Positions 29,820 through 62,995 of a stretch of 64,000 nt of DNA are shown here, in pieces. The DNA comes from Arachis hypogaea. Taxonomy: Eukaryota > Streptophyta > Magnoliopsida > Fabales > Fabaceae. The position numbers were made by a program, and so were the translations under genes. The number at the start of each line of letters is the position of its first letter. Within the stretch, counting starts at the first letter, position 1. The stretch covers positions 44,700,137 to 44,764,136 of the forward strand of contig NC_092042.1 in the NCBI RefSeq assembly GCF_003086295.3, in the 5' to 3' direction. The notes under the pieces are model-generated. The model had not been told where the DNA came from and ran no database searches. It was given only the letters and a program-made list of their open reading frames with translations.

Positions 29820-30150
29820 ATCCCCCTAAACCCTAAACCCAAAACCCTAAAAATCCTAAAAACCATAAAACCCTAAACCCTAAAAATCAAAACCCTAAAC
29901 CCTAAACCATAAACCATAAACCCTAAACCCTAAACCCTAAAACCCTAAAACCCTAAACCCTAAACCCTAAACCCTAAAACCCTAAAACCATAAACCCTAA
30001 ACCCTAAACCCTAAAACCATAAACCCTAAAACCATAAACCCTAAACCCTAAAACCCTAAAACCCTAAACCCTAAAACCCTAAAAACATAACCCTAAACCC
30101 TAAACCCTAACACCCTAAAACCCTAACTCCTAAACCCTAAACCAACGAAA
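29820..30150. repeat. Degenerate telomere-type (CCCTAAA)n block
   Basis: About 330 bp of CCCTAAA units with variants CCCTAAAA and CCATAAA. The strand is the C-rich telomere strand. It sits between the 3' ends of the two MULE genes, about 330 bp past the Ulp1 stop. Confidence 0.9.
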
Positions 30151-34110: not shown

Positions 34111-34115
34111 CCTGT
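34111..34115. repeat. Target-site duplication CCTGT (left)
   Basis: Repeated exactly at 39467-39471. Confidence 0.9.
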
Positions 34116-34777
34116 TGTATTACTCAAATTTTTGTTAATGTTTAAAAGAAAATGTGGGTATCTCAACGTCGCAATTGTAACGTCAAATAATATTAAAAGG
34201 AATAAAAGCAACAAATAAACATATAAATGCAAGGTGTCGGTGGAAAAATAAATTGCAGAAATTGAAACAAACAAAAAATTAAAAAGAAGATGAAAGAAGA
34301 AACATGAACGTAAAAGAGAAGAAGAAATAAAAGTAGAGGAATTTTATTAATAAAACTGGGAAAAAGGAAAGTACAAGTGTTTGAGTTCAGAGAAATTACT
34401 TAAGATTCCCAATTTTACTCTGTGATGCCAAGGTGCTGAGAGCGTTTTGAGTTTCTAAGTGTTTTCCAAGAAGAACTGAACTGCCTACAATATTTTCCTA
34501 AAGCTCTATTTATAGATTAACCTAATGTCAGCTAACAGTTACCATTTGTACATCACTTACAGAAAAATTTGAATTTCTTGTAACTGTTCCCGCACCTCTT
34601 GTGAATTTCAAAAATTAAATAGATAGCCAACTGACAAATGATTTAATTTAATTTAAAATATATATAAATATTATATATAGAGACATATAGATATAAATAT
34701 TATATATAGAAACATTACCAAGTAACTAATTATTTCTTTTGATAATTTTCTTATAAAAATTATTATTTTGTCTAACA
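34116..34777 (-). repeat. 3' LTR (662 bp)
   Basis: Pairs with 38833-39466. They share, for example, CTCAAATTTTTGTTAATG and the CTAACA end. Small indels separate them, including a roughly 30-bp AT stretch absent from the other copy, so the insertion is not very recent. Confidence 0.9.
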
Positions 34778-35330
34778 TAATTCCCTCCAAAATTTTTTCA
34801 CTTTAAGTCATACAGTGATTGAAAGTGAAAAATTTTGTTGTTTATAATAATAAAAGAAGTATATACAAACGTATGTTTATTTATTTATTTATTTTTCATT
34901 TTTTTACTTATATATATATATATATTTAAAGATATATAAATGATAACAATAAGTGTTGATAAGAAGGAAATTTTGAGACATCACATAGAAAGCACATAAG
35001 AGTGCTGTACTCTTTTCCCTTTTCTTTGTTATTTTGTTTATTTATTTATTTATTTTTAAATTGGCTAAACAAAAGTAAAATAACTCAGTACTCTTATCTT
35101 CTTGTAATACATGTGAGAGAGAATACGTTAGTGTTAAGCTTCTTCTTCAACTCTGTGCCTTTCACTCTCCCCAATTTCATCTACTATGGTGGGCTTCCTC
35201 TGTTCACAAGGATTTGATTATACTTAATTCTTCTAATATTTTAGGCAAGAACTTCTTCCACTCCTCCATCTTCATTCTAGAAAATCAATTTTTGATGTAA
35301 AGTGGATGGAATAGCACCCATTTCATGAAT

Positions 35331-35783
35331 CTAATCACGTCCCAAAAGCAAGTTTAAACCAGCCTTTGAAGGAAACACAACAAATAGAGTTGGCCTATTG
35401 ACAGAACCAACCTCAATTGACAGCAGAACCACACCTCTAACAAAAGAAGTCCTTCCATTAAAATCTGTTACCCCAATGCTACTTTTAATCAGATCTTTTT
35501 CAGTCTTTCCAAGCCTTCCCATCATTCTTTCAGGCATGAGATTAACAGCAGCTCCCTCATCAACCAAAATCTTATTGACTATCCTTCCATCAACACGAGC
35601 CTTGATATGCAGTGGACGCAAGTGTTCCTTATCATTTTTAGCAGGATTCTCAAATAATCCTCCACCACAAATATTGTCATCTAGCAATAAGCATTCGCTT
35701 CCAGGAAAGACATCATAACAATCATCTTCTAATAACTCTACTTCCTGGACTTGACTATACTCCTCAGGCAGTATTGACACCAC
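35331..35783 (-). pseudogene. Retroviral-type aspartic protease domain of the gag element
   Basis: About 150 codons. The flap and core are visible: RPLHIKARVDGRIVNKILVD followed by EGAAVNLMPERMM, later NRPTLFVVFPSKAGLNLLLG. The usual catalytic D-S/T-G triplet reads D-E-G here, which would be unusual for an active enzyme. It ends shortly after LLLGRD, where RT would normally begin. Stops at 35.8-35.9 kb separate it from gag. Confidence 0.75.
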
Positions 35784-35854
35784 AGCTATAGGTTGCTTAA
35801 CACCAAATATTGCTTCTAAGCTATCATCAAAATCAGTGTCAAAATTATCAGTAA

Positions 35855-38758
35855 TTAAATCTTCATCCTTTTTCCCTTGTTTTCAACCATTACCCTCTTC
35901 CCAGCAAGATTCTTCTTTATATTTTTATTGCATTTAGGGTTATTAGAAGAATTGCATGTTTCTGCAGACTTGGCCATGGTTGGCAAAGGAGGAAAATCTA
36001 CTCCGTGTCCCTTGTATGGATCCAAATGAACATACTCAGGTATATTCTCTTTCTGCTCAAAAGTTGTAAAGGAGAATATTTTGGAATATTTTGACAATTT
36101 GGCCAAGGAGAATAATTAGGAACCTGCTGCATGCTAGGATTATAACAAGAATAAATTGGCTTTGAGGGAATAGGCACATTTTTTGGAATATATATACTAC
36201 CTCCGTCTTGTGCATGATTCATGTTCCATAACTGAGACTCATAGTACATTGGCTTAAAAGGTCTAGACTTCACCCATTTATTTTTTCCTCTTGCAAAAGC
36301 AGTAGGTTGATTCTGCACATTTCTCACATTCTGGACCCATTTATTGTTTGAAATTTTGGTGGGAGAAACTCTTGTCTTTTGAGAAAATCCATCAGGTTTT
36401 CCATCAATCATGACCATAGTCTTCATCTTCTAGTTGACGGGTTGTACCCCAGTGTTGTTGAGCACTTGTTCAAAGGAGTTTGACCGCCCAACTTTTGTTT
36501 TTCCTCGGCTATCTTTCGCTTTAGCTCGTTAGTTTCATTTTCTTTTTCAGCAATCTTCTTTCTTAACTCAGCCTTTTCTTTCTCTTCAACTTTGTACTTT
36601 TCAAACTCTTTTGTAGCTTCCTTGTCAAAAATAGCATTGCACTTTGGGCACATGGCGATGGTGCTATCAGATTCTTTAATTCTCAACAAAAAATCTAACA
36701 AATCCTCACCAGGACAAGGATAAATTGGCTTCTTGTCTTGCTCAAAGATCCTTAGGTCTTTATTTTCATCTTTAGCACTAACCATTATGGCATCAACTTC
36801 TACCATGTTGACTGACAAGTTGAATGGCTCAACATAATTTGAGTCAGCAGCAAATGGTTTAGTGTCCACCTTCATAGTAGTTTTATCTTCAAACTTCAAC
36901 CTTCCCTCCTCAATTGCTTTTTGTATCAAATCCCTGAAACGGACGTAATTATTAGTGGTGTGTGAGAACACCTGATGAAACTTACAAAATTTTTTATTCT
37001 TTATTTCATCAGCTGAAGGCATCTTTTTTCCTTCTGGTAAAATAAGCTGCTTATCTTTTAATAAAACTTCAAATATTTGATCTGCCTTAGAAATATCAAA
37101 AGAATAAGTCTTATTTTCAATTTTGGAATATGAAGAAACTTTTTCTTTTCTTTTAACAGGCTTCAAAGATTTACATACATAAGGAGGACCCCCACGCAAT
37201 TTAGCAATATAAACCTCTTTCTCATCTGAATTACTACTATCGGAAAAACAATCAACATATACAACCTTTTTAGAACCTTTTTTGAAATTTTTTTCTTTTT
37301 TAATTTGTTCTATTTGTCTTACTCTTTCAGCTAACTGGGAAAGATCTAAAGTATGTTGATTGACAAGTTTCTTCTTAACTCCAAATTCTAACCCATTAGT
37401 AGCCATTTTGACAACTTCAGTTTCCAGAATTAGAGTAAAACACTTATTTCTCATGTTTCTAAATCGCGCCAAATAAGTATCAATGGATTCTCCTTCTGCA
37501 CGTTTGACAGGGAATAAATCCGTAAAACTAACTTTCAATTCACCTCGGAAAAACTGATCATGAAAATTTCTTTCTAACTGTGCCCAAGAATGAATAGAAT
37601 TTGGTCTCAAGTTGGAGAACCATATAAATGCATTTTTTGTTAAAGAAGAAGGAAAGTATCTCATCTTGAGATATTCATTAGAAGCTACTTCCCCAATTTT
37701 AACAGTATATCGAGCAATATGCTCTACTGTAGACTCATTTTCTTCTCCAGAAAATTTTGTAAGGAATTTTGAAATTTTCCAACCCCTTGGGAGCTCTGCT
37801 TGTTGGACACATTCAGGAAAAGCAGATACAAAATATGGCCTATTTAAGCAACCAACATTAAATCTCAAACGGTTTAAAACTTGTTCAACATTTCTTGCTA
37901 GATTATAATGCCCCCCTAAGTTGTTTTGCCTAAGTCTTTCTAACATATCATCAGCATTTTGACCATGTCTAGGCATATGAACATCATAATTAGGAATTGC
38001 TCCACCGTTCTGATTGACATTATCAAATCTTAAACCCAAGTTGTCATTTTCTTCTAAATTTACCACAGTAGCAATCCTATTGACTTGCCTATTTAATTTT
38101 CAATTCTAGTGTTTGTATTTTCTAAAAGAGGATTTAAAACTGTCACCATTTGATGAGTTAACATGTTTACTAGATCATGGTGGCTTTCATCCATCTGTTG
38201 CCTAATATTTGCTAAAGATCCCACCGTTTGACTAGGTTGATTAACAGGCATTGCTCTTGATATGTCAGGAAATACAGGTCTGGAATTTTCTACCCTAGTG
38301 ACAGTGGATGTAGTAGAATTAGATGCACTATTATTTCCTGTATTAATAGAATGTGAAAAATTTTGTTGTGATATGTGTGAACCTGACGCCCCAGAAACAG
38401 GTACATTTGACATGCCATATGGATTTTGATAAATAGGATTTTGAAAAGTTAAGTAGAGAGGCACAGACAATCCTTGTGTCACCAAGGAGGGGACATACCC
38501 CGGTGGCAAGCCATATGGCGGCCACCCCACAGTATTTATGTGAGTTGCATTTAACCCTGTATGGGCATGGCCAACGCCATCATGCCTCACTGACATCAAG
38601 GTAGGCTCTGCGTTTGAAATCACAGGAGAATTTTCGGATTCATTTCCTCTCATCTCATCACTAGAAGTAGAAGAAGATGCTGCAGAAGTATTTGACATGT
38701 CAACTGACGCTGATTTCCTTGGCTCTGGATGCACGAACTTACCACTACGCAACCACAT
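35855..38758 (-). CDS. gag: Gag-like polyprotein of the non-autonomous element
   Basis: Three adjoining frames on the minus strand. 38758-38093 is a Ser/Asn-rich N-terminal region (221 codons). 38066-36423 (547 codons) holds the retrotransposon gag domain (KFSGEENESTVEHIARY, FIWFSNLRPNSIHSWAQLER, RAEGESIDTYLARFRNM) plus a C-terminal coiled coil (EEKEKAELRKKIAEKEN). 36426-35998 is a basic Asn/Pro-rich tail. A single-base shift separates the first two frames (near 38092). A cysteine pair, CPKCNAIF, occurs near the end, but I see no CCHC knuckle. Function: virus-like particle shell protein. Confidence 0.8.
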
Positions 38759-38832
38759 GCAAACTCAAAAACTCCTGGTTTTCCTTTTGACAATTACAAT
38801 CTATTGACAACGTCCCACCGGGCGTGTCAACT

Positions 38833-39466
38833 TGTTTTACTCAAATTTTTGTTAATGTTTAAAAGAAAATGTGGGTGTCTCAATGTCGCAATTGTAACGT
38901 CAAATAATATTAAAAGGAATAAAAGCAACAAATAAACATATAAATACAAGGTGTCGGTGGCAAAATAAATTACAGAAATTGAAACAAACAAGAAATTAAA
39001 AAAGAAGATAAAAGAAGAAACATGAACGTAAAAGAGAAGAAGACGTAAAAGTAAAGGAATTTTATTAATAAAAACTGGGAAAAACAAAGTACAAGTGTTT
39101 GAGTTAAGAAGAATTACTTAAGATTCCCAATCTCTGTGATGCCAAGGGGCTGAGAGCGTTTTGGGTTTCTAAGTGTTTTCCAAGAAGAACTGAACTGCCT
39201 ACAATATTTTCCTAAAACTCTATTTATAGACTAACCTAATGTCAGCTAACAGTTACCATTTGTACACCACTTACGGAATATTTGAATTTCTTGTAACTGT
39301 TCCCGCACCTCTTGTGAATTTCAAAAATTAAATAGATAGCCAACTGATAAATTATCTAATTTAATTTAAGAGACATATAGATATAAATATTATATATAGA
39401 AATATTACCAAGTAACTAATTATTTCTTTTTATAATTTTTTTATAAAAATTATATTTTGTCTAACA
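38833..39466 (-). repeat. 5' LTR (634 bp)
   Basis: Pairs with 34116-34777; the CCTGT duplication follows at 39467-39471. Confidence 0.9.
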
Positions 39467-47525: not shown

Positions 47526-47530
47526 TAAAA

Positions 47531-47948
47531 GAGTACAGTATCGTTTTTGTCCCCAATGTTTGGGTTAAGTCTCAAAGTTGTCCTTAACGTTTTAATCGTC
47601 CTATTTAAGTCCCTAACGTTTCAAAACTGACTCAATATTGTCCTGCCGTTAGGGATCCATTAACAGAATTGACGGTGGGACAAAATTGAGACAATTTTGA
47701 AACATTAGGGACTTAAATAGGACAAAAACGTTGGAGACAAAAATGATACATAAAAATAAATTTTAATTTTATCTTTCAATAATATCAATTTTTTACTATA
47801 CATAGTATTCAATTATTTTTTAATCACATCTAAATAAATTACACTTAATCATATTACTTTCATTTTAAATAAATTAATTTTTTTATAATTTTACTTTTAA
47901 AGATTTTTAGTTATCATGAAATATTTGTAGAATGACTAGGATATAAAC

Positions 47949-48007
<59 letters not shown>

Positions 48008-48408
48008 CCTTTTGTCTCTGATGTATCAAAATTCTTTAAAATTATAGAAAAATAAATTTATTTAAAATGAAAGTAATGTGATTAAGTGTAATTTATTTAG
48101 ATGTAATTAAAAAATAATTGAATAATATGTACAATAAAAAATTAATATTATTGAAAGATAAAATTAAATTAAAATTTATGTTTATGTATCGTTTTTGTCT
48201 CTAATGTTTTCGTCCTATTTAAATCCATAACGTTTCAAAATCGTCTTAATTTTGTCCTGCCGTCAATTCTATTAACGGATCCCTAACGGTGGGACAATAT
48301 TGAGTCAATTTTGAAACGTTAAGGATTTAAATAGGACGATTAAAACGTTAGGGACAACTTTGGAACTTACCCCAAACGTTGCGGACAAAAACGATACTTT
48401 ACTCTAAA
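47531..48408. mobile_element. Long-hairpin MITE (about 400-bp arms)
   Basis: The left arm begins AGAGTACAGTATCGTTTTTG. The right end, reverse complemented, begins AGAGTAAAGTATCGTTTTTG. The match continues for nearly the whole left arm (to about 47.93 kb) against the right arm (48.01-48.41 kb), with a 45-bp (AT)n loop at 47958-48002. Each arm itself contains smaller inverted pieces (CCTATTTAAGTCCCTAACGT and its mirror). No coding capacity. Confidence 0.8.
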
Positions 48409-53041
<4,633 letters not shown>

Positions 53042-54283
53042 TTAAAGAATAAGCAAAGTATATATATATGTACCTGAAACATCCCATATACTAAAAGAAA
53101 TACGAGCTCCTTGAACAAACAATTTTTGTCCATTATATGCTGCTTCAGTTAAGTGTACACCATCCCAAGTTATGAACTGGGATGGATCATTACAACTAAC
53201 CAACCCCGGTTCACCACAGTGCTTCGCCGGTGGATTGTGATAGTTTGCATTCGCTAGTGGACAGCAAGAATCTAGAATCGATTTTGTGAATCCTGATAGC
53301 ACAAACAAACCACAACTTATGAGGAATAATAGAATCATATGTGATATGTGATTGTTCAAAGACGATATATCATTCAAGAAAGTATGCAGAAAAAAGAAGA
53401 GTTAAGTACCAAATTGTGTTGGAGATTGATATAATTGCAAGGAAGCATGGTAATAATCTGCATAGATGATATTAACACCGAGGTGAAGCTGTCGAAGCCG
53501 ATTTAATTCAGCAAGAAGTTGGTTGTTATAGTAGTCAGCAAAATTGTTATAGGACTTTAAACATCCAGCTTCATCATAATCCTCCACATCAGTACTGGGG
53601 TGACTTCTCAAATAGACAAAGCTGCATCCGAGAGCGAAGTTTCCGGGAACCACGAGAGTTTGAGCCCCCAAATCAATCAATTTCTGACCAAGGTTCAGTT
53701 ATATATGGATTATGATTCAAAATAATTCTTAAATGCTGGCTTTATAAGATACTCTCAGATTTTATATAATTATCTTAAATGCTTGCTTCACAAGATATTC
53801 AAATATATTAATGCTTCCAAAACTCTTACATTGATGGCCCAAGAGATTTTATTAATCACAAGTGGTACATATGTCGTGGCTTCTTCTATAGGCCTGCCTA
53901 GATAGAAAAGATAGTTGAAATCATTGCCACCAATCTCACCCACAAGAAACAAAGAGCTCCCAAAAACTTGTTTACACCCTGCAAAATTAGAAGACTATCC
54001 CATAAGTTTCAATTGGAGCATTATTGCAGCTTGCCTGTGCCCAATTGAAAAGAACAACTGGAAGATTACCTGAAGAAGAGTTACAGATAGAAGGAAGCAA
54101 GTCCATGAACCAATCAAACTGGACCCCCAGAGAATAGTTGGTGGGAACAAGAACGTCATAGAGACCCTTCTCCACCAAGAAGCTAATATCCAAAGCAGTG
54201 GCACCTCCAACTGCAAAGTTCACTCCCTCCAATGAGTTCCAATCTTTTATCTTCCCTTTCTTAATAATTTTAGTAGGATTAAC
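53042..54283 (-). CDS. GDSL esterase/lipase lacking the catalytic first exon
   Basis: Four exons: 54283-54070, 53978-53830, 53683-53410, 53293-53042, about 295 aa in phase. Seen: block II (GVNFAVGGATALD), block III (FLVGEIGGNDFNYLFYLG) and the block V Asp-His (ITWDGVHLTEAAY), plus ALGC and the cysteine-rich DSCCPLANANYHNPPAKHCG region. These identify the plant SGNH/GDSL family: secreted hydrolases of lipid or cell-wall esters. Family proteins are usually near 370-390 aa. The missing 80 or so residues would hold the signal peptide and the nucleophile Ser (GDSxxDxGN). The clear acceptor at 54284-54285 shows an upstream exon existed, but none with this motif appears up to 57.1 kb. It is either a 5'-truncated copy or has a very distant first exon. 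Confidence 0.8.
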
Positions 54284-55607
54284 CTGTTGACATTTTGATA
54301 TTATTAAAACTAAACAAAGCTTAAACAGCAAAAGCATTATTGGATTGGAATAGTGAAGAGAGCAAAGCACACAAATGACACACGGGTTTGTAATACACTA
54401 ATAAGTGAGTGCCAAATGCCAATAAGTTGATATAATTATTTTAAAGCTAACTGGCACTGCGGTTGAATATTTTAAAGCTGAAACCATAACCAAAAGACAA
54501 AAGATGAGTTGAAAACATGATGGGTTGATCATTAATGATTAAAGAACTCAATCAATAAAAGAAAGAACGTAGAAAACTAGCAGTTAAATTACAAACAAAA
54601 GAATATGATTAACTAAAGCAATATAAAAGACTCCAACATTAAAACCAATATTCTTAACATATTACAAGCCCAGAATAGAAGAATAATGTATTACATCAAT
54701 TTCTTAAACCTGCAAAATTCAGACCAACAATTGATAACTAAAAAAAGTTTTGAATAGGAAACAAAAAGACGCACGATTTAAGGCAATAAATAGCTCTTAC
54801 CATTCAAAAGACAAGTTTTCTCCCCGGTATCTTTGTACTGACGGAGACATGGTTTAGACGAAAAAAATAAGGCAAGACAAGCACTAAAGGGATTGCAACA
54901 GAGTGACTGCCACACACAGAATCAGCTTCCAACCAAGCAATTGTGGCAACCTACAAGGGTTTTGAAAAATGGATCCCCTAATTAAAGAAGTCAATCAAGC
55001 ATCTTGAGAGCCAAGAACAAAACATACAAGTCTAGAAACTAAAAATTTTAACTGTTAATGAACAAGCTCTATGGAAAAAGAGAATGGTAAGAATGCTTAA
55101 ATCTGTAGACAAATTACAAATATCAATATTATATAGAGTCTACAGTGCTGATTTTTTTCTCGAGAATATTTTGAACAAAATCAAGGAAACTTGTTCCATG
55201 ACTTCAGTGCTATGTATTTGTGTATATATATAAATCATATGCATAAATTTGACAACATTCTGCATAATCAAAATAGGAGTCCCATAAGTTACATAAAATC
55301 ACAAAAAGTTAACTCCAAATAGTAAAAGGCATTAACATCAACCAATCAGAACCAAACCGGCCGATGTACCATCCTACATACAGAACGTTCCAGATCAGAA
55401 AAAACCTGCATAAAATCAGACCTTTGCCATAAGATGAGTATATTTCATCATTAAATAAACAAAGTTAACGCAAAACAAAATTGTCCATAAAGAAAAAAAA
55501 AAAAAGAAAAAAGAGTTAAAATATCCAAAGTGATAAAAAATATTATTTTTACAATTTTAATATAAGACTATAAAATAATAAACTTCTAACTAAATTAAAT
55601 TATATTT
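54284..55607. other. Upstream side of the GDSL gene, no first exon found
   Basis: Scanned on the minus strand for a GDS-type exon; none seen. No other gene. Confidence 0.5.
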
Positions 55608-55612
55608 ATTAT
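55608..55612. repeat. Target-site duplication ATTAT (left)
   Basis: Repeated at 56587-56591. Confidence 0.8.
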
Positions 55613-56586
55613 TATTAGAAAGGGTAAGAGAGACCAGTAGAAAAAAGGTTTGTGTGTATTCAAGTTGTGTAGAATGATACAATATAGAAGAGTATTTATA
55701 GGTGCTAAGAGAATCAAAATAATAAAGACGTAATATCCTATAATAAATATTCAGATATATTAAATAATACTAATTGATCTAATTGATCTTAATTATACTC
55801 TAACATCCCCCTCAAACTCAAGTGACAATTTGAGTTTGAAACTTATTTGAAACAACTAAATAAAAATGCATAAACTGATAGAACAGGTACATACGGAACT
55901 GCTTGTAGAAAGTGCAGACATAACTGCCAGAATGAAGCACAAACAGAATTGGCACAAGGAAGCGCAGACGGAACTACCACAAGAAAACGTAGAGGGAATT
56001 GCTGGAAGGAAGCGGAGACAAAACTGCTGGAAGGGAGCGCAGACGGAACTGCTGGAAGGAAACGTATACAGAACTGCCGGAAGGGAACGCAGATGGAACT
56101 GCTACAAGAGTGGCCAACTGCCGAAAAACTGCTAAAAAGATGGCGAACTACTGGAAAACCGCTGAAAAGTGACAAAGTGCAAAGAGACGATAAACTATCG
56201 AAAGGTGACGAAAAACATGTAGTTTCTCTATGAGAATAAGTAAGTAATGGATAAGCTAATTGGTAACATAAGAAAAGCATCAAAGCATTGACAAAAGAGA
56301 AAGAAAAAAAATAGCACAGAAGAAAGGTACGATGATTTCACCAGGAGAAAATCAGCTTACCATCCTCAAGGAGTATACCATGACTCTGATACCATGTTAA
56401 AAAGGGGAGAGGGAGCAATAGAAAAAAGGTTTGTGAATATTCAAGTTGTATAGAATGATATAATATAGAAGGATATCTATAGGTGATAAGAGAATCGAAA
56501 TAATAAGGACGTAATATCCTATAATAAATATTTAGATATGTTGAATAATGCAAATTGATCTAATTGATAATAATTGTACTCAAACA
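55613..56586 (-). mobile_element. TRIM-like miniature copia LTR retrotransposon (974 bp)
   Basis: LTRs 55613-55805 and 56395-56586 are direct repeats of about 192 bp, flanked by ATTAT duplications. Inside the 5' LTR (minus orientation) the sequence TGGTATCAGAG at 56394-56384 is the standard copia primer site pairing with initiator-methionine tRNA. At the other end GAGGGGGA (minus strand) abuts the 3' LTR as polypurine tract. The inner 589 bp encodes no known protein and is made largely of a diverged repeat of about 22 bp (GCAGACGGAACTGCTGGAAGG) at 55890-56110. Confidence 0.9.
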
Positions 56587-57142: not shown

Positions 57143-57204
57143 TGTCACGGTAAATTTTAAAAGGTTAAATTTAACAGTGTTTGTAGAGTTTTCTAGAGTT
57201 TTGA

Positions 57205-57309
57205 GAATGTTCTAGATGGTTCTAGAACGTTCTACAATGTCCTAGAAGGTTCTGGAATACCCTAGAAGGTTCTAGAAGACTCTAGAAGATCATAGAATAT
57301 TCTAGAAGA
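57205..57309 (+). promoter_or_regulatory. Heat-shock-element array, 21 alternating pentamers
   Basis: Reading in steps of five, the sequence alternates GAAnn and TTCnn units 21 times without a gap (for example GAAGG TTCTA GAAGA). By my reading 9 of 11 GAA-type and 6 of 10 TTC-type pentamers are exact. Alternating nGAAn/nTTCn pentamers are the binding site of heat-shock factors. It ends about 157 bp before the TATA box. Confidence 0.75.
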
Positions 57310-57466
57310 GTGTGGATGTATATAGAAGTATGAAGAGTAGTATAGAACAATCTAGAAGTATTTAGAAAGTAGTGGTAGGATAGATATTTGTAAAGAAGGT
57401 TCTAGATGATTAATCTAGACTGTTGATTAGATTTAATCTTAACCATCCATTGAGGAGGTGGATGGC

Positions 57467-57474
57467 TATAAATA
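57467..57474 (+). promoter_or_regulatory. LTR TATA box
   Basis: TATAAATA within CTATAAATAGGAGG; fits transcription start about 30 bp downstream. Confidence 0.7.
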
Positions 57475-57659
57475 GGAGGTGAGAGTTAGTGTGAGTCATG
57501 GGTGAATCATTTGTAACAAACACTTAAGCAATAAAGTGTTCTTCCACCAAAGCTTCATTTCTCTTGTGTTCTCTTGTATTTTTAGCTTTCTTGCTAAGTA
57601 TTGAAGGTTAGGCTGACTTGGTCTTAGCTCAAAAGGTTGAGTAAGTCCAAGTGCCGGCA

Positions 57660-57676
57660 CGCGCCGTTGCCGGGGA
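57660..57676 (+). promoter_or_regulatory. Primer-binding site (tRNA-Asp type)
   Basis: CGCGCCGTTGCCGGGGA agrees with the usual plant gypsy site TGGCGCCGTTGCCGGGGA, complementary to the 3' end of Asp tRNA. Confidence 0.7.
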
Positions 57677-57749
57677 ATTGCAAACGTGTGCCTTATTATT
57701 GGTTATTGTAAATATTTGCTTTTTGCTTTTTGTTAGTTTTAGGACTTAG

Positions 57750-59682
57750 TTGCTTATTCTTACTAGTTTTTGTTTTTATTTTTCTACTAAGAATTCTTAC
57801 CCCTTTGGCTATGAGTTTAGTTCAAATTATGTTGTAGGGAATGGAAGCTATAATGTGAACATGCATCAAGGTTGGGACAATCAAAGATGGGAGGAGCCAC
57901 AAGGATTTGATCAACCCTCTTGGCAACAACCCCCTCCAATGCACTATGACCAATAATCATTCTATGATGCATACCAAGACAATAGTGATGGTGGACTTCT
58001 TCGTGACAACCAACCTCCACCAAATTACTATAGTCAAGAGCCATTCCGAGGTGCGTACCAAGATGATAGATATGGTGGACCCCTTGTAGTTACCAACAAG
58101 CCCCACCATATGCCTATCACCCCCTCCTCAAAATGGGTTTGAACCACCAAACTCACAAGCCCCCTACTACTAAACACCCTCATATGACCCTAACCCTTAT
58201 CCATCTTATGAACCATACTTAGAACCACCCCCATTCCAATACAATTACTCTCATGAGCCGCCACCTCAATATTCACCATCTCCATGCCCTTACCAAGAAG
58301 AACCACCTTCCTACCATGCACCCTTTCTCCAAAATAATGAATCTTCCTACCCACCCAACCTCCACTGGATGACAACACCCTTGGTGCTATTCACCAAGGG
58401 CAAACAGAGCTTCATACCATATTTGCCTCTATCACTGGTCTCACCTCTAAACTCCAAAATCTTATATCCCGCATGGACCACCCCTCTACCTCCAATATTC
58501 AACCCTCAAGCTCTAGTGCACTTCCTTCTCAATCACATAATGATCTGTCCATCCCATCACCACCCTTCATGGAAGAGCACCCACATCCATCAATCCAAGA
58601 GCAACCTGATCGCAATGGATCGGTTACACGCGGCCTTATTTCCAGGGGAGCAAGAGGAGGCCCAAAATGTGGAGGTAGGAGAGACCCTTGAAGATGAAGG
58701 AGTAGTTGAAGGGAGTTGTCATAGAAAGGAAATCATCAAGGAAGAGTATGATTTTATGCTAAAATAACTGGAGGAAGCCGTAATTATTGAAGAGGAAGAA
58801 GTGGTTGAAGACTTAGGAGATGCGGAACCTCCATGGGAAGGTCAAATCATAGAGCCTCCCTCTAAGATGCTTGAAATTGATGTTGAGGAGGGTGTACAAC
58901 CTCCAAGGCGTATCATGGCTGAAGACTTTGAGGAGGTCGATCAAGAGATGGATTCAATCATTGATGAATCCTTATCTACAATTGAATCCTATCCTATTGA
59001 ACTTGACATGGGGATTAAAGAAGAAGAAGCACAACCTCCCATGCCCTTGGTGAACAATGAAGAAGAGATTGAATTGGAAGAACACTACCAAGAGGAAGGG
59101 GCTGATATCGAAGAAGCTTGCAAGGAGGTCGAAGTTGTCAGAGAAGAGCACAAGGGAGTGGAGCTTGTAAGATCATTAGAAACACCTCTCCCAAGGCCAT
59201 CACTGTCCAACACAATATTCAAGTGGGTAAAATTCTTATCCTTGACCTTTACTTTCCCACTTGAATATGGGCTACTGGAGACGGATGGTCAACTTAGAGC
59301 TCTCTGTGGCCTTAAGAGTAAGAGGGAGATGATCAGTGGGAAGAGCTGTCAATCAAGGTTCAATATGGTTGTATGCTCCAAGTTGAAATGCAAAGGTTAG
59401 TGTAGAGTTCAATTGACTGCATCTAGGATGTTGTTGGGACATTTCAGTGACAATTCAAATTACTTGCCACCCGGTTGGAAAGATGATGATCAACAAGAAG
59501 ACGGGTGCAAAAGCAAGGTTTGGGACTCCGAAATTCATTTTAGTCATCAACACTCTTGGGGTCTTTTCACTAGCTTTAACTTGCTTGAAGGATTTATGCG
59601 CCTAGTTTTGGACCCCGGAGGCTATTGGAATTGCAAGCATTGGTGGGGATTCCAGGAAGAGTTCAAGCACAAGCCACCATGA
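57750..59682 (+). pseudogene. Gag-like remnant of a non-autonomous plus-strand element
   Basis: Frames broken by several stops: a Gln/Pro-rich part at 57750-58370 (WQQPPPMHYDQ), a Ser/Pro part at 58369-58767, an acidic Glu-rich frame at 58801-59400 (PPRRIMAEDFEEVDQEMDSI) and a Trp/His-rich end at 59413-59682 (GYWNCKHWWGFQEEFKHKPP). I recall such WNCKHWW ends from many legume LTR elements but cannot name a domain. No RT or integrase is present. A GGGAGACAACCC motif follows at 59735-59746. Confidence 0.55.
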
Positions 59683-59924
59683 CAAGGAACTCACTAATTG
59701 TCCAACTTAAGGACTTTAACTAAAAGTGCTAGGTGGGAGACAACCCACCATGGTATGATCGTTCTTTTCTCTCTTCTTAGTTTTCTTTTTAAGTGACTCT
59801 TCTCATTATTAGTACATATAATTTGCATCTTCTTATGCATATTGCATATTGCATAAAAAAACAAACTGAACAGAAAGTTGCGTGGGAACAATGCAGAAAG
59901 AGTGCCAATCGCACAAGCATCACC

Positions 59925-60330
59925 ACGCGTACGCGTCCCTCATGTGTACGCGTCATCTGATAATTTGGCACTTCACGCGTACGCGTCAATGACGTGCACG
60001 CTTGACCTTGCGAATTCGACATAAAAGGTGTATTGGCCAAAAGTTATGCTGGCTTGGTGCTAGAACTGTGCTAGAAGCACAAACCCACCCACGCGTACGC
60101 ATCATTGACGCGTGTGCATCATTTTCCACTTTTGCACGCGCACGCGTCAAATGACATTTTGGCACATATCCCAAAACGAACAGAGGGTTGTGCGAGCACC
60201 ACGATGCCCTCGCGTGAGCACCACAAACATGGTCACGCGTCGCTCACACGCGTCGCCTCCCTCTCTGCGCAACCCACGTGTAAGCGTGGAGCACGCATGC
60301 GCGTCGTGCGCGCAACACGCTTAGAACCCT
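59925..60330. repeat. ACGCGTACGCGT dyad array
   Basis: Repeated CACGCGTACGCGT, GTACGCGTCA, CACGCGCACGCGTCA and CACGCGTCGC units at irregular spacing, rich in CpG within AT-rich DNA. It occupies the same place in its element (after the gag-like region) as the GGCGTT array does in the Athila-type element. Confidence 0.8.
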
Positions 60331-62527
<2,197 letters not shown>

Positions 62528-62995
62528 TGATGCACCACTATTTCATGGTACATCTTGTGCTTAATTGAGTGGATTATATCCACTATTCTCACACTTATTC
62601 ATAGAAATCGCATGTTTTACATTTTCCTTCCTAATTTTGTGCTATGATTGAAAACATGTTTCTTTGGTCTTAATTTAATTAATTTTAATCCTCTCTCATT
62701 ACCATTCGATGCCTTGATATGTGTGTTAAGCGTTTTCAGAGATTACAGGGAAGGAATGACTTAGAGGATGGAAAGGAAGCATGCAAAAGTGGAAGGAATA
62801 CAAGAAACTGAAGGAATTGCTGAGCTGTCCAGCCTGATCTCTTTGTACTAAATCGACTATAACTTGAGCTACAGAGGTCCAAATGAGGTGGTTCTAGTTG
62901 CGTTGGAAAGCTAACATCCGGGGTTTCGAAACGATATATAATTTTCCATAGTTGCCACGCTGTTAGGTGACGCGCACAGAAACACCACAATCACT
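62528..62995 (+). repeat. 3' LTR start, truncated
   Basis: TGATGCACCACTATTTCATG follows the polypurine tract. It does not match the LTR at 57143 (TGTCACGG), so two elements are joined between them. The sequence changes to a minus-oriented element near 62995-63050. Confidence 0.55.

What the first reader, a model, noticed from the sequence alone, without database searches (positions are those of the whole stretch)
57205..57309. Retrotransposon LTR carrying a 105-bp heat-shock-element array
Seen: 21 consecutive pentamers alternating GAAnn/TTCnn with no phase slip, upstream of a TATA box, in an LTR followed by a primer-binding site. Known: heat-shock factors bind such alternating pentamers, and the Arabidopsis copia element ONSEN is heat-activated through elements in its LTR. 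Inferred: this gypsy-like family may be transcribed, or mobilise, under heat, and could give heat response to nearby genes. The array is far longer than a usual two- to four-unit site.
Basis: partly seen in the sequence, partly recalled or inferred. Interest (0 to 1): 0.8.

Follow-up and report, generated by a model that had tools for sequence, protein, structure and literature searches.

The report
Heat-switch-like repeats in peanut retrotransposon LTR
A young family of jumping genes in the peanut genome carries, in its promoter, a ladder of short repeats that matches the binding sites of plant heat-shock regulators, so heat may switch the family on, although no heat experiment was available to check this.

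Summary
The array is real: 57205-57309 holds 21 in-register pentamers, 15 exactly GAA/TTC, and the 10-bp register runs on, decayed, to 57404. It lies in the U3 of a truncated LTR, 57143-57661. Related LTRs in the same genome (2.557 Gb, Arachis) belong to a young Ty3 chromovirus (domains of one copy; ten LTR pairs 0-1.45 Myr at a recalled rate). Of 48 sampled family LTRs, 41 carry an exact four-unit heat-shock element, the type correlated with strong heat induction in Brassicaceae copia elements, and 42 keep the array length exactly; the window copy has three-unit sites only. Evidence for selection is weak: exact units vary less than the rest of the array (P 0.010) but not less than the rest of the LTR (P 0.20), and three-unit sites are no commoner than a uniformly decayed decamer repeat would give. 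Most likely an HSF-responsive enhancer, ONSEN-like but in a chromovirus; heat response is untested.

The parts
57143..57661 (+). Truncated LTR of the peanut chromovirus family (TGTCACGG start; last ~32 bp of the family LTR missing)
   Evidence: 40 scored genome matches: the window itself and 39 others covering query 1 to 516-518; family LTR 546-552 bp in the 28 of 30 copies whose end was found
57205..57309 (+). The reported array: 21 in-register GAA/TTC pentamers, 15 exact
57205..57404 (+). Full 10-bp ladder (20 decamers, GAAnnTTCTA type), decayed after 57310; exact GAA 14 of 20, exact TTC 7 of 20
57220..57232 (-). Exact three-unit HSE; 41 of 48 family LTRs have an exact four-unit HSE, mostly beginning here
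57245..57257 (+). Exact three-unit HSE (middle TTC exact in 5 of 18 elements)
57265..57277 (+). Exact three-unit HSE, each of the three units exact in 18 of 18 elements
57295..57307 (+). Exact three-unit HSE (first unit exact in 11 of 18 elements, other two in 18 of 18)
57395..57402 (+). Isolated in-register GAAnnTTC pair about 63 bp before the TATA box (GAA 18 of 18, TTC 17 of 18 elements)
57467..57472 (+). TATA box
   Evidence: TATAAA in 44 of 44 aligned LTRs
57530..57535 (+). AATAAA, likely polyadenylation signal of R
   Evidence: 44 of 44 aligned LTRs
57661..57662 (.). Junction between the chromovirus LTR and a foreign element
   Evidence: LTR matches of 39 other copies end at 57659-57661; matches of the downstream sequence start at 57661-57671 in 39 of 39 other scored copies
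57661..62527 (+). Interior of a different, decayed element (extent inferred): tRNA-Asp-type PBS (16 of 18 letters of a recalled probe), ORF remnants 58174-59682 without a significant Pfam match; its own 5' LTR is missing
62528..62978 (+). Sequence like the start of the LTR that precedes this interior in its relatives (TGATGCACC...), probably that element's 3' LTR; no HSE array
   Evidence: blastn: 18 of 19 relatives match here, 78-91%; no exact three-unit HSE outside the array in the window

Best explanation
The array is the U3 enhancer of a young peanut Ty3/gypsy chromovirus family. A decamer of the form GAAnnTTCTA was multiplied in tandem in the LTR of an ancestor. In today's family it gives one exact four-unit heat-shock element, one or two three-unit elements and a 10-bp ladder of single GAA units, upstream of a conserved TATA box. 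Most likely mechanism: on heat stress, trimeric class A heat-shock factors bind side by side on this ladder and switch on transcription from the LTR, as HSFA1/HSFA2 do for ONSEN. Shown here: the array, its register, its presence in the sampled family LTRs, the TATA box and AATAAA, chromovirus coding domains in one copy, young LTR pairs with target-site duplications. Inferred: HSF binding, heat induction, mobilisation. The window copy itself is a broken piece: an LTR cut short and joined to another element, with three-unit sites only, so at this locus the array can at most act as a stray enhancer.
For: Register and exact units far above local chance. U3 position before TATAAA; TATAAA and AATAAA in 44 of 44 LTRs. 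41 of 48 family LTRs have an exact four-unit HSE and 42 of 48 an array of exactly the same length; 18 of the 48 were found with a query that excludes the array. In Brassicaceae copia elements predicted four-unit HREs go with up to thousand-fold and three-unit with up to hundred-fold induction (PMC5059998, passages). Control: 0 of 19 loci of the other element family have even a three-unit HSE in the 1,500 bp before the shared interior. Exact units vary less than the rest of the array, base-matched: 15 of 60 against 59 of 140 columns, P 0.0097. Over the 200-bp ladder of the window copy exact units exceed uniform decay (21 of 40 against 14.8, P 0.008). No indel shared between different elements falls in the array (L086/L087 counted as one duplicated element), several fall in the rest of the LTR.
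Against: No expression or binding data were available. Exact units are not less variable than the rest of the LTR (15 of 60 against an expected 17.9, P 0.20; for variants shared by two or more elements 8 against 7.8, P 0.63), and sliding the unit map by +1 gives an equally low count (14 of 60). In a smaller set GAA columns were spared (7 against 12.5, P 0.028) but TTC columns were not (16 against 13.4, P 0.87). Against uniform decay of a decamer repeat the window core has no significant excess of exact units (14 of 20 against 10.95, P 0.055) nor of three-unit sites (core 3 against 2.8, P 0.51; 200 bp 4 against 1.8, P 0.15). The family is young, so shared phase is mostly shared descent. The TA between TTC and GAA, which HSF contacts little (recalled), is as well kept as GAA in the core (19 of 20). 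TTC is exact in 1 of 10 steps of the 3' half. CG depletion is no stronger in the LTR than in the foreign interior (o/e 0.21 and 0.23; rest of window 0.60), so the CG/CHG-free promoter of ONSEN is not reproduced.
Confidence: 0.58

Rival explanations
1. A decamer minisatellite without regulatory function: TTCTAGAAnn multiplied by slippage or unequal exchange in an ancestral LTR, and any such decamer reads as an HSE array. It has been carried along by the family and is decaying.
For: Similar identity at lags 10, 20, 30 and 40 (0.50-0.55); one element lost exactly 50 bp, five units; three-unit sites no commoner than under uniform decay (P 0.51 and 0.15); the array apart from the exact units changes faster than the LTR (59 of 140 columns against 47.1 expected); exact units are not slower than the LTR background; TTC side lost in the 3' half.
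Against: Exact units are spared relative to the rest of the array (P 0.0097); a four-unit HSE is present in 41 of 48 LTRs; no indel shared between elements breaks the register in 200 bp; U3 position. A minisatellite origin does not exclude HSF binding: ONSEN's own HRE arose by duplication (PMC5059998, passages).
Confidence: 0.3
2. A tandem U3 enhancer for another regulator or for constitutive expression, with 10-bp helical phasing of a TAGAAG-type site on one face of the helix; the likeness to HSEs is a by-product.
For: GAA and TAGAA are better kept than TTC over the full ladder (14 of 20 against 7 of 20, Fisher P 0.056; TAGAA 11 of 20, TTCTA 6 of 20); GAA columns spared, TTC columns not. Tandem U3 boxes for other factors are known from tobacco elements such as Tnt1 (recalled).
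Against: In the window core the better kept part is palindromic TTCTAGAA with a free two-base spacer (71 of 80 against 11 of 20, P 0.0015), the shape of an HSE; no other plant factor with this alternating 5-bp register is known to me (recall).
Confidence: 0.1
3. One reading: the window holds one gypsy-like element whose own 5' LTR carries the array and is followed by its primer-binding site.
For: A tRNA-Asp-type PBS (16 of 18 letters of a recalled probe) directly follows the LTR piece.
Against: LTR homology stops at 57659-57661 in the 39 other scored copies; the 39 other scored copies of the downstream family all start at 57661 or later, none with this LTR; 17 of 19 fetched ones show ..TCAAAATGGC before it, an LTR end of another kind; the LTR-like sequence at 62528 has no array; chromovirus copies use TGGTATC.GAG as PBS (13 of 30 LTRs).
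Confidence: 0.02

Closest known systems
ONSEN / COPIA78 of Arabidopsis (PMC3907296, abstract and passages; PMC5059998, passages)
   Same: LTR with an HRE (nTTCnnGAAn, 4P type) in the promoter; retained across young copies; HSFA1/HSFA2 drive it there
   Different: ONSEN is Ty1/copia with one 4P and one gap HRE; here a Ty3 chromovirus with a 200-bp ladder. ONSEN's LTRs have no CG or CHG sites; these have several. Heat response shown there, untested here
TERESTRA / Alesia.FAM.7 (PMC5059998, passages; PMC10881000, passages)
   Same: Cluster of several nGAAn motifs in the LTR (six in A. lyrata TERESTRA, a four-motif cluster in Alesia.FAM.7)
   Different: Copia; up to six motifs in the passages I saw, against 13-15 exact units in 105 bp in 39 of 48 LTRs here
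HSE clusters in Caenorhabditis Helitrons (PMC6927752, passages)
   Same: Repetitive, overlapping HSEs spread by a transposon; HSF-1 bound there
   Different: DNA transposon in an animal; binding and gene induction shown there
Heat-induced Ty3/gypsy elements: PHRE1/PHRE2 of moso bamboo (PMC8656106, passages), Cryptomeria and pine LTRs (PMC9780303, passages)
   Same: Ty3/gypsy LTR elements studied or reported as induced under heat
   Different: The terms HSE and HSF do not occur in the main text of the PHRE paper; in the review 'HSE' does not occur and the HRE passage shown concerns copia

Membership tests
Ty3/gypsy chromovirus (family to which the LTR belongs) | pol order PR-RT-RNase H-INT with C-terminal chromodomain | tested here: met
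   Pfam on four pieces of the open frame of one copy (L034): Ty3_capsid/Retrotrans_gag, aspartyl protease, RVT_1, RT_RNaseH, Integrase_H2C2, Tf2-1-like SH3, Chromo 3e-11. The frames of three other copies were only read. The window copy has no interior of its own
Ty3/gypsy chromovirus (family to which the LTR belongs) | LTR TG..CA, PBS and PPT next to LTRs, target-site duplication | tested here: met
   TGTCAC..TGACA, 546-552 bp in 28 of 30; TGGTAT after 13 of 30, purine tract before 16 of 30, neither only in the window copy; 4-bp duplication in 8 of 10 pairs (two of them one duplicated locus), no match in one, right end not found in one. Assignment of TGGTATC to initiator tRNA-Met is recalled
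Named chromovirus clade (Galadriel, Reina, Tekay, CRM) | RT phylogeny | not tested
   No tree built
Heat-responsive element (HRE/HSE) | At least three adjacent nGAAn units (definition as in PMC5059998) | tested here: met
   Four exact alternating three-unit sites in the window copy; exact four-unit site in 41 of 48 family LTRs
Heat-responsive element (HRE/HSE) | Bound by HSF | not testable with these tools
   No binding data held
ONSEN-type heat-activated retrotransposon | Transcript and extrachromosomal DNA induced by heat through HSF | not testable with these tools
   No RNA or eccDNA data held
[quoted passage not shown]
   4-6 CG and 5-10 CHG sites in six LTRs counted of 30 held then; depletion like that of the neighbouring foreign interior
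ONSEN/COPIA78 family itself | Ty1/copia pol (INT before RT) | tested here: not met
   RT precedes integrase, chromodomain present
Athila/Calypso-type element (downstream of 57661) | PBS for tRNA-Asp a few bases after the LTR (as in Diaspora and Calypso, PMC1142308, passages) | tested here: met
   TCAAAATGGC.. before GTTGCCGGGG-type sequence in 17 of 19 relatives; 16 of 18 letters of the tRNA-Asp probe, which is recalled, in the window
Athila/Calypso-type element (downstream of 57661) | RT of the Athila lineage | not tested
   No significant Pfam match in the five ORF remnants tested

The most novel reading that the evidence does not exclude
Peanut carries a young chromovirus family with open coding frames and about 1,000 first-look LTR candidates that has independently evolved a multi-trimer HSF landing strip in its U3, the first such case I know of in a Ty3 chromovirus or a legume element, and has thereby spread hundreds of portable heat-responsive enhancers through the genome, including truncated LTRs such as this one that still carry the array.
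Probability: 0.35. Interest if true: 0.68.

Novelty: new variant of a known kind. Interest (0 to 1): 0.5.

Why it matters
HSF-driven LTRs are established for a few Brassicaceae copia families. A chromovirus with a longer HSE array across its sampled copies, in a heat-exposed crop, would show that the trait arises repeatedly across superfamilies, and offers a directly testable link between heat, retrotransposon activity and heat-responsive expression of nearby genes in peanut. Heat-stress RNA-seq of peanut would decide it quickly.

Tried and rejected
Rejected: the LTR plus PBS as one element; ONSEN-like CG/CHG avoidance; a copia assignment from the TGGTAT PBS, which I first considered (note) and which the domain order overturned. 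Led nowhere: viral contigs with a 23-letter HSE pattern gave two IMG/VR contigs, of which I read only part of one and scanned the other for tandem repeats (none); PBS-region pattern, interior-protein scans of viral contigs and genome contigs, and plasmids gave no relative; bacterial promoter scan uninformative; no long open frame across the array. A 7-unit HSE pattern search of the whole genome was asked ten times and never answered, so I cannot say whether other LTR families have longer exact arrays. Ten paper searches (open-licence PMC only) listed no paper that I recognised from title and abstract start as describing such an array in peanut, legume or Ty3 LTRs; two lists were cut (20 of 23; 25 of 609). 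The peanut repeat paper I looked up by a recalled DOI is not held. In one search two elements (L030, L031) had been given one label by mistake; one search repeats the count with 27 elements and gives the same numbers. From I dropped 4 of 48 LTRs (L071, L073, L081, L082) whose start was not placed by my exact-match rule. The tool scored only the best 40 of 1099 and 40 of 1001 candidates, and I aligned 30 of the first and 18 new ones of the second, so the sample leans to similar copies. One search aligned minus-strand copies unturned; one search replaces it. The grouping of LTRs into elements and the pairing by coordinates are mine.

Full report
Observation. The stretch 57205-57309 was read pentamer by pentamer: the alternating GAA/TTC register holds through all 21 units, 15 triplets are exact and 55 of 63 letters match. 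No other place in the window scores above 33 on the same measure and 300 Markov sequences trained on the local DNA reach at most 35. All four exact three-unit HSEs of the window are here; shuffles of the whole window reach four or more in 5 of 100, so it is their packing into 88 bp that is unusual. The register is a 10-bp repeat: identity at lags 10, 20, 30 and 40 is 0.50-0.55 against 0.19-0.34 at other lags. It continues in phase to 57404; over the 20 decamers GAA is exact 14 times and TTC 7 times.

Where it lies. A search of the window's own genome (2.557 Gb, 440 contigs; first answered) shows that 57144-57661 matches other LTRs at 92-93% in the 39 other places scored of 1099 candidates; including the T at 57143 the family LTR is TGTCAC..TGACA, 546-552 bp in the 28 of 30 fetched copies whose end was found. 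Named relatives of the ORF downstream come from Arachis hypogaea, A. duranensis, A. stenosperma and Stylosanthes scabra, so the window is Arachis; tetraploid peanut is an inference from genome size. Of the 40 scored places, 28 form 14 pairs by my reading of the coordinates, six about 3.8-3.9 kb and eight about 5.1 kb apart.

The family. Four elements were fetched. One has a single open frame of 1525 residues, whose pieces match Ty3 capsid/gag, aspartyl protease, reverse transcriptase, RNase H, an integrase zinc finger and a chromodomain in this order: a Ty3/gypsy chromovirus. The two short elements read (L033, L036) have frames in which the stretch holding RT and RNase H of the long ones is missing (by reading). 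Of 30 LTRs, 13 are followed by ATTTGGTATC.GAG (initiator-tRNA-Met type, recalled), 16 are preceded by a purine tract, and the window copy has neither; 8 of 10 pairs show a 4-bp target-site duplication, one does not, and in one the right end was not found. The two LTRs of an element differ at 0-12 of about 518 sites in the ten pairs compared, 0-1.45 Myr at a recalled rate of 8.12e-9. So it is a young family.

The junction. At 57661 the window leaves this family. A search with 57630-58200 scored 40 places of 7734 candidates: besides the window itself, 39 of 39 begin at query 32-42, that is at 57661 or later, and none carries the chromovirus LTR. In 17 of 19 fetched relatives the same interior is preceded by ..TCAAAATGGC, an LTR end and PBS of another kind, and 0 of 19 have a three-unit HSE in the 1,500 bp before it. 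This looks like the tRNA-Asp primer-binding site described for Diaspora and Calypso of soybean (PMC1142308, passages; the probe letters are recalled). The sequence that starts the upstream LTR in these relatives recurs at window 62528 (18 of 19 match, 78-91%), probably the 3' LTR of the second element.

Family test of the array. Alignment of 48 LTRs (30, 18 more from a search with the array-free part): 41 have at least one exact four-unit HSE, 42 have an array of exactly the window's length, two (one element) have lost 50 bp, one has lost 2 bp, three gained 1 bp; exact units in the first 21 range from 6 to 15. One copy has six exact units in a row (L028). In 18 elements, one LTR each, the units at 57220, 57230, 57245, 57255, 57265, 57270, 57275, 57285, 57300, 57305, 57345, 57355 and 57395 are exact in all 18, and of the first 21 those at 57215, 57260, 57280 and 57290 in none. 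So the conserved pattern is one four-unit site, one or two three-unit sites and a GAA ladder, not 21 perfect units. The window copy lacks the four-unit site that most sampled relatives have.

Is it under selection? Within the window array the TTCTAGAA columns are better kept than the two spacer columns (71 of 80 against 11 of 20, P 0.0015), but HSE columns as such are not better kept than the others (P 0.18). Against a decamer repeat whose mismatches are spread evenly, exact units are in excess over 200 bp (21 of 40 against 14.8, P 0.008) but not clearly in the core (14 of 20 against 10.95, P 0.055), and three-unit sites are not in excess (P 0.15 and 0.51). Across 44 LTRs of 27 elements, base-matched, exact units vary less than the rest of the array (15 of 60 against 59 of 140, P 0.0097) but not less than the rest of the LTR (91 of 305; P 0.20); variants shared by two or more elements tell the same (8 of 60; P 0.0087 and 0.63). 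Sliding the unit map by one base gives 14 of 60. An earlier count on 30 LTRs looked somewhat stronger (7 of 57 against 72 of 318, P 0.08, and against 43 of 143 in the rest of the array, P 0.011) and faded against the LTR with more copies. Shared indels avoid the array, but they are few. I read this as weak evidence for upkeep of the sites, and as no proof of function.

Mechanism. Plant HREs need three adjacent units; four-unit sites take two HSFA2 trimers and go with the strongest heat induction of Brassicaceae copia LTRs (PMC5059998, passages); ONSEN is activated through HSFA1 and HSFA2 on its HRE (PMC3907296, passages). The chromovirus U3 has the same kind of site, more of them, at about 60-260 bp before a TATA box that is kept in 44 of 44 LTRs. 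Heat-induced transcription is therefore the most likely function, at 0.58; a decaying minisatellite is the main rival, at 0.30. At this locus only a stray enhancer effect could remain. The nearest gene-like exons that I noticed lie about 2.9 kb away on the other strand (by reading), and no effect on them was tested.

Known or new. HSE-driven LTRs are known for copia elements and HSE-rich Helitrons for Caenorhabditis (PMC6927752, passages); a review lists heat-induced gypsy elements, but the HRE passage shown there concerns copia (PMC9780303, passages). In the listings of ten searches of open-licence papers, two of them cut, I saw no report of an HSE array in a chromovirus or a peanut element. 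Hence: new variant of a known kind, if functional.

Noticed in passing
L033 and L036 (G000:C8:3487400-3492300, C14:11762100-11766900): Short (about 4.4 kb) members of the chromovirus family whose frames lack the stretch that holds RT and RNase H in the long members (by reading); six pairs have this LTR spacing (3.8-3.9 kb), as if a non-autonomous derivative had been copied in trans.
   Followed up: partly
window 52700-54300, minus strand: Exon-like pieces with a GDSL-esterase look (recalled motif; no Pfam match to the two ORF pieces tested); I saw no first coding exon in 52600-56000, and the LTR lies about 2.9 kb beyond their upstream end.
   Followed up: partly
window 55619-56586: Two 187-bp direct repeats (87%) 781 bp apart flank a 25-bp minisatellite; could be a small LTR element.
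   Followed up: no
window 29824-30143: 320 bp of interstitial CCCTAAA telomere-type repeats.
   Followed up: no
window 34115-39466: Retrotransposon with 665-bp repeats 91% alike about 4.7 kb apart, gag and protease domains.
   Followed up: no
window 47530-48405: Large imperfect palindrome, 246-bp and 141-bp arms at 89-91%, MITE-like.
   Followed up: no
window 58768-59397: Acidic ORF of the second element with 71 hits, the named ones Arachis and Stylosanthes, and a conserved C-terminal block (FKWVKFL..LEYGLLETDGQLRALCG); no Pfam family, function unknown.
   Followed up: partly
G000:C8:3474383-3478817 and 3487611-3492050: Two chromovirus copies 13 kb apart, LTRs identical within each pair and the same flanking letters: a segmental duplication.
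   Followed up: no
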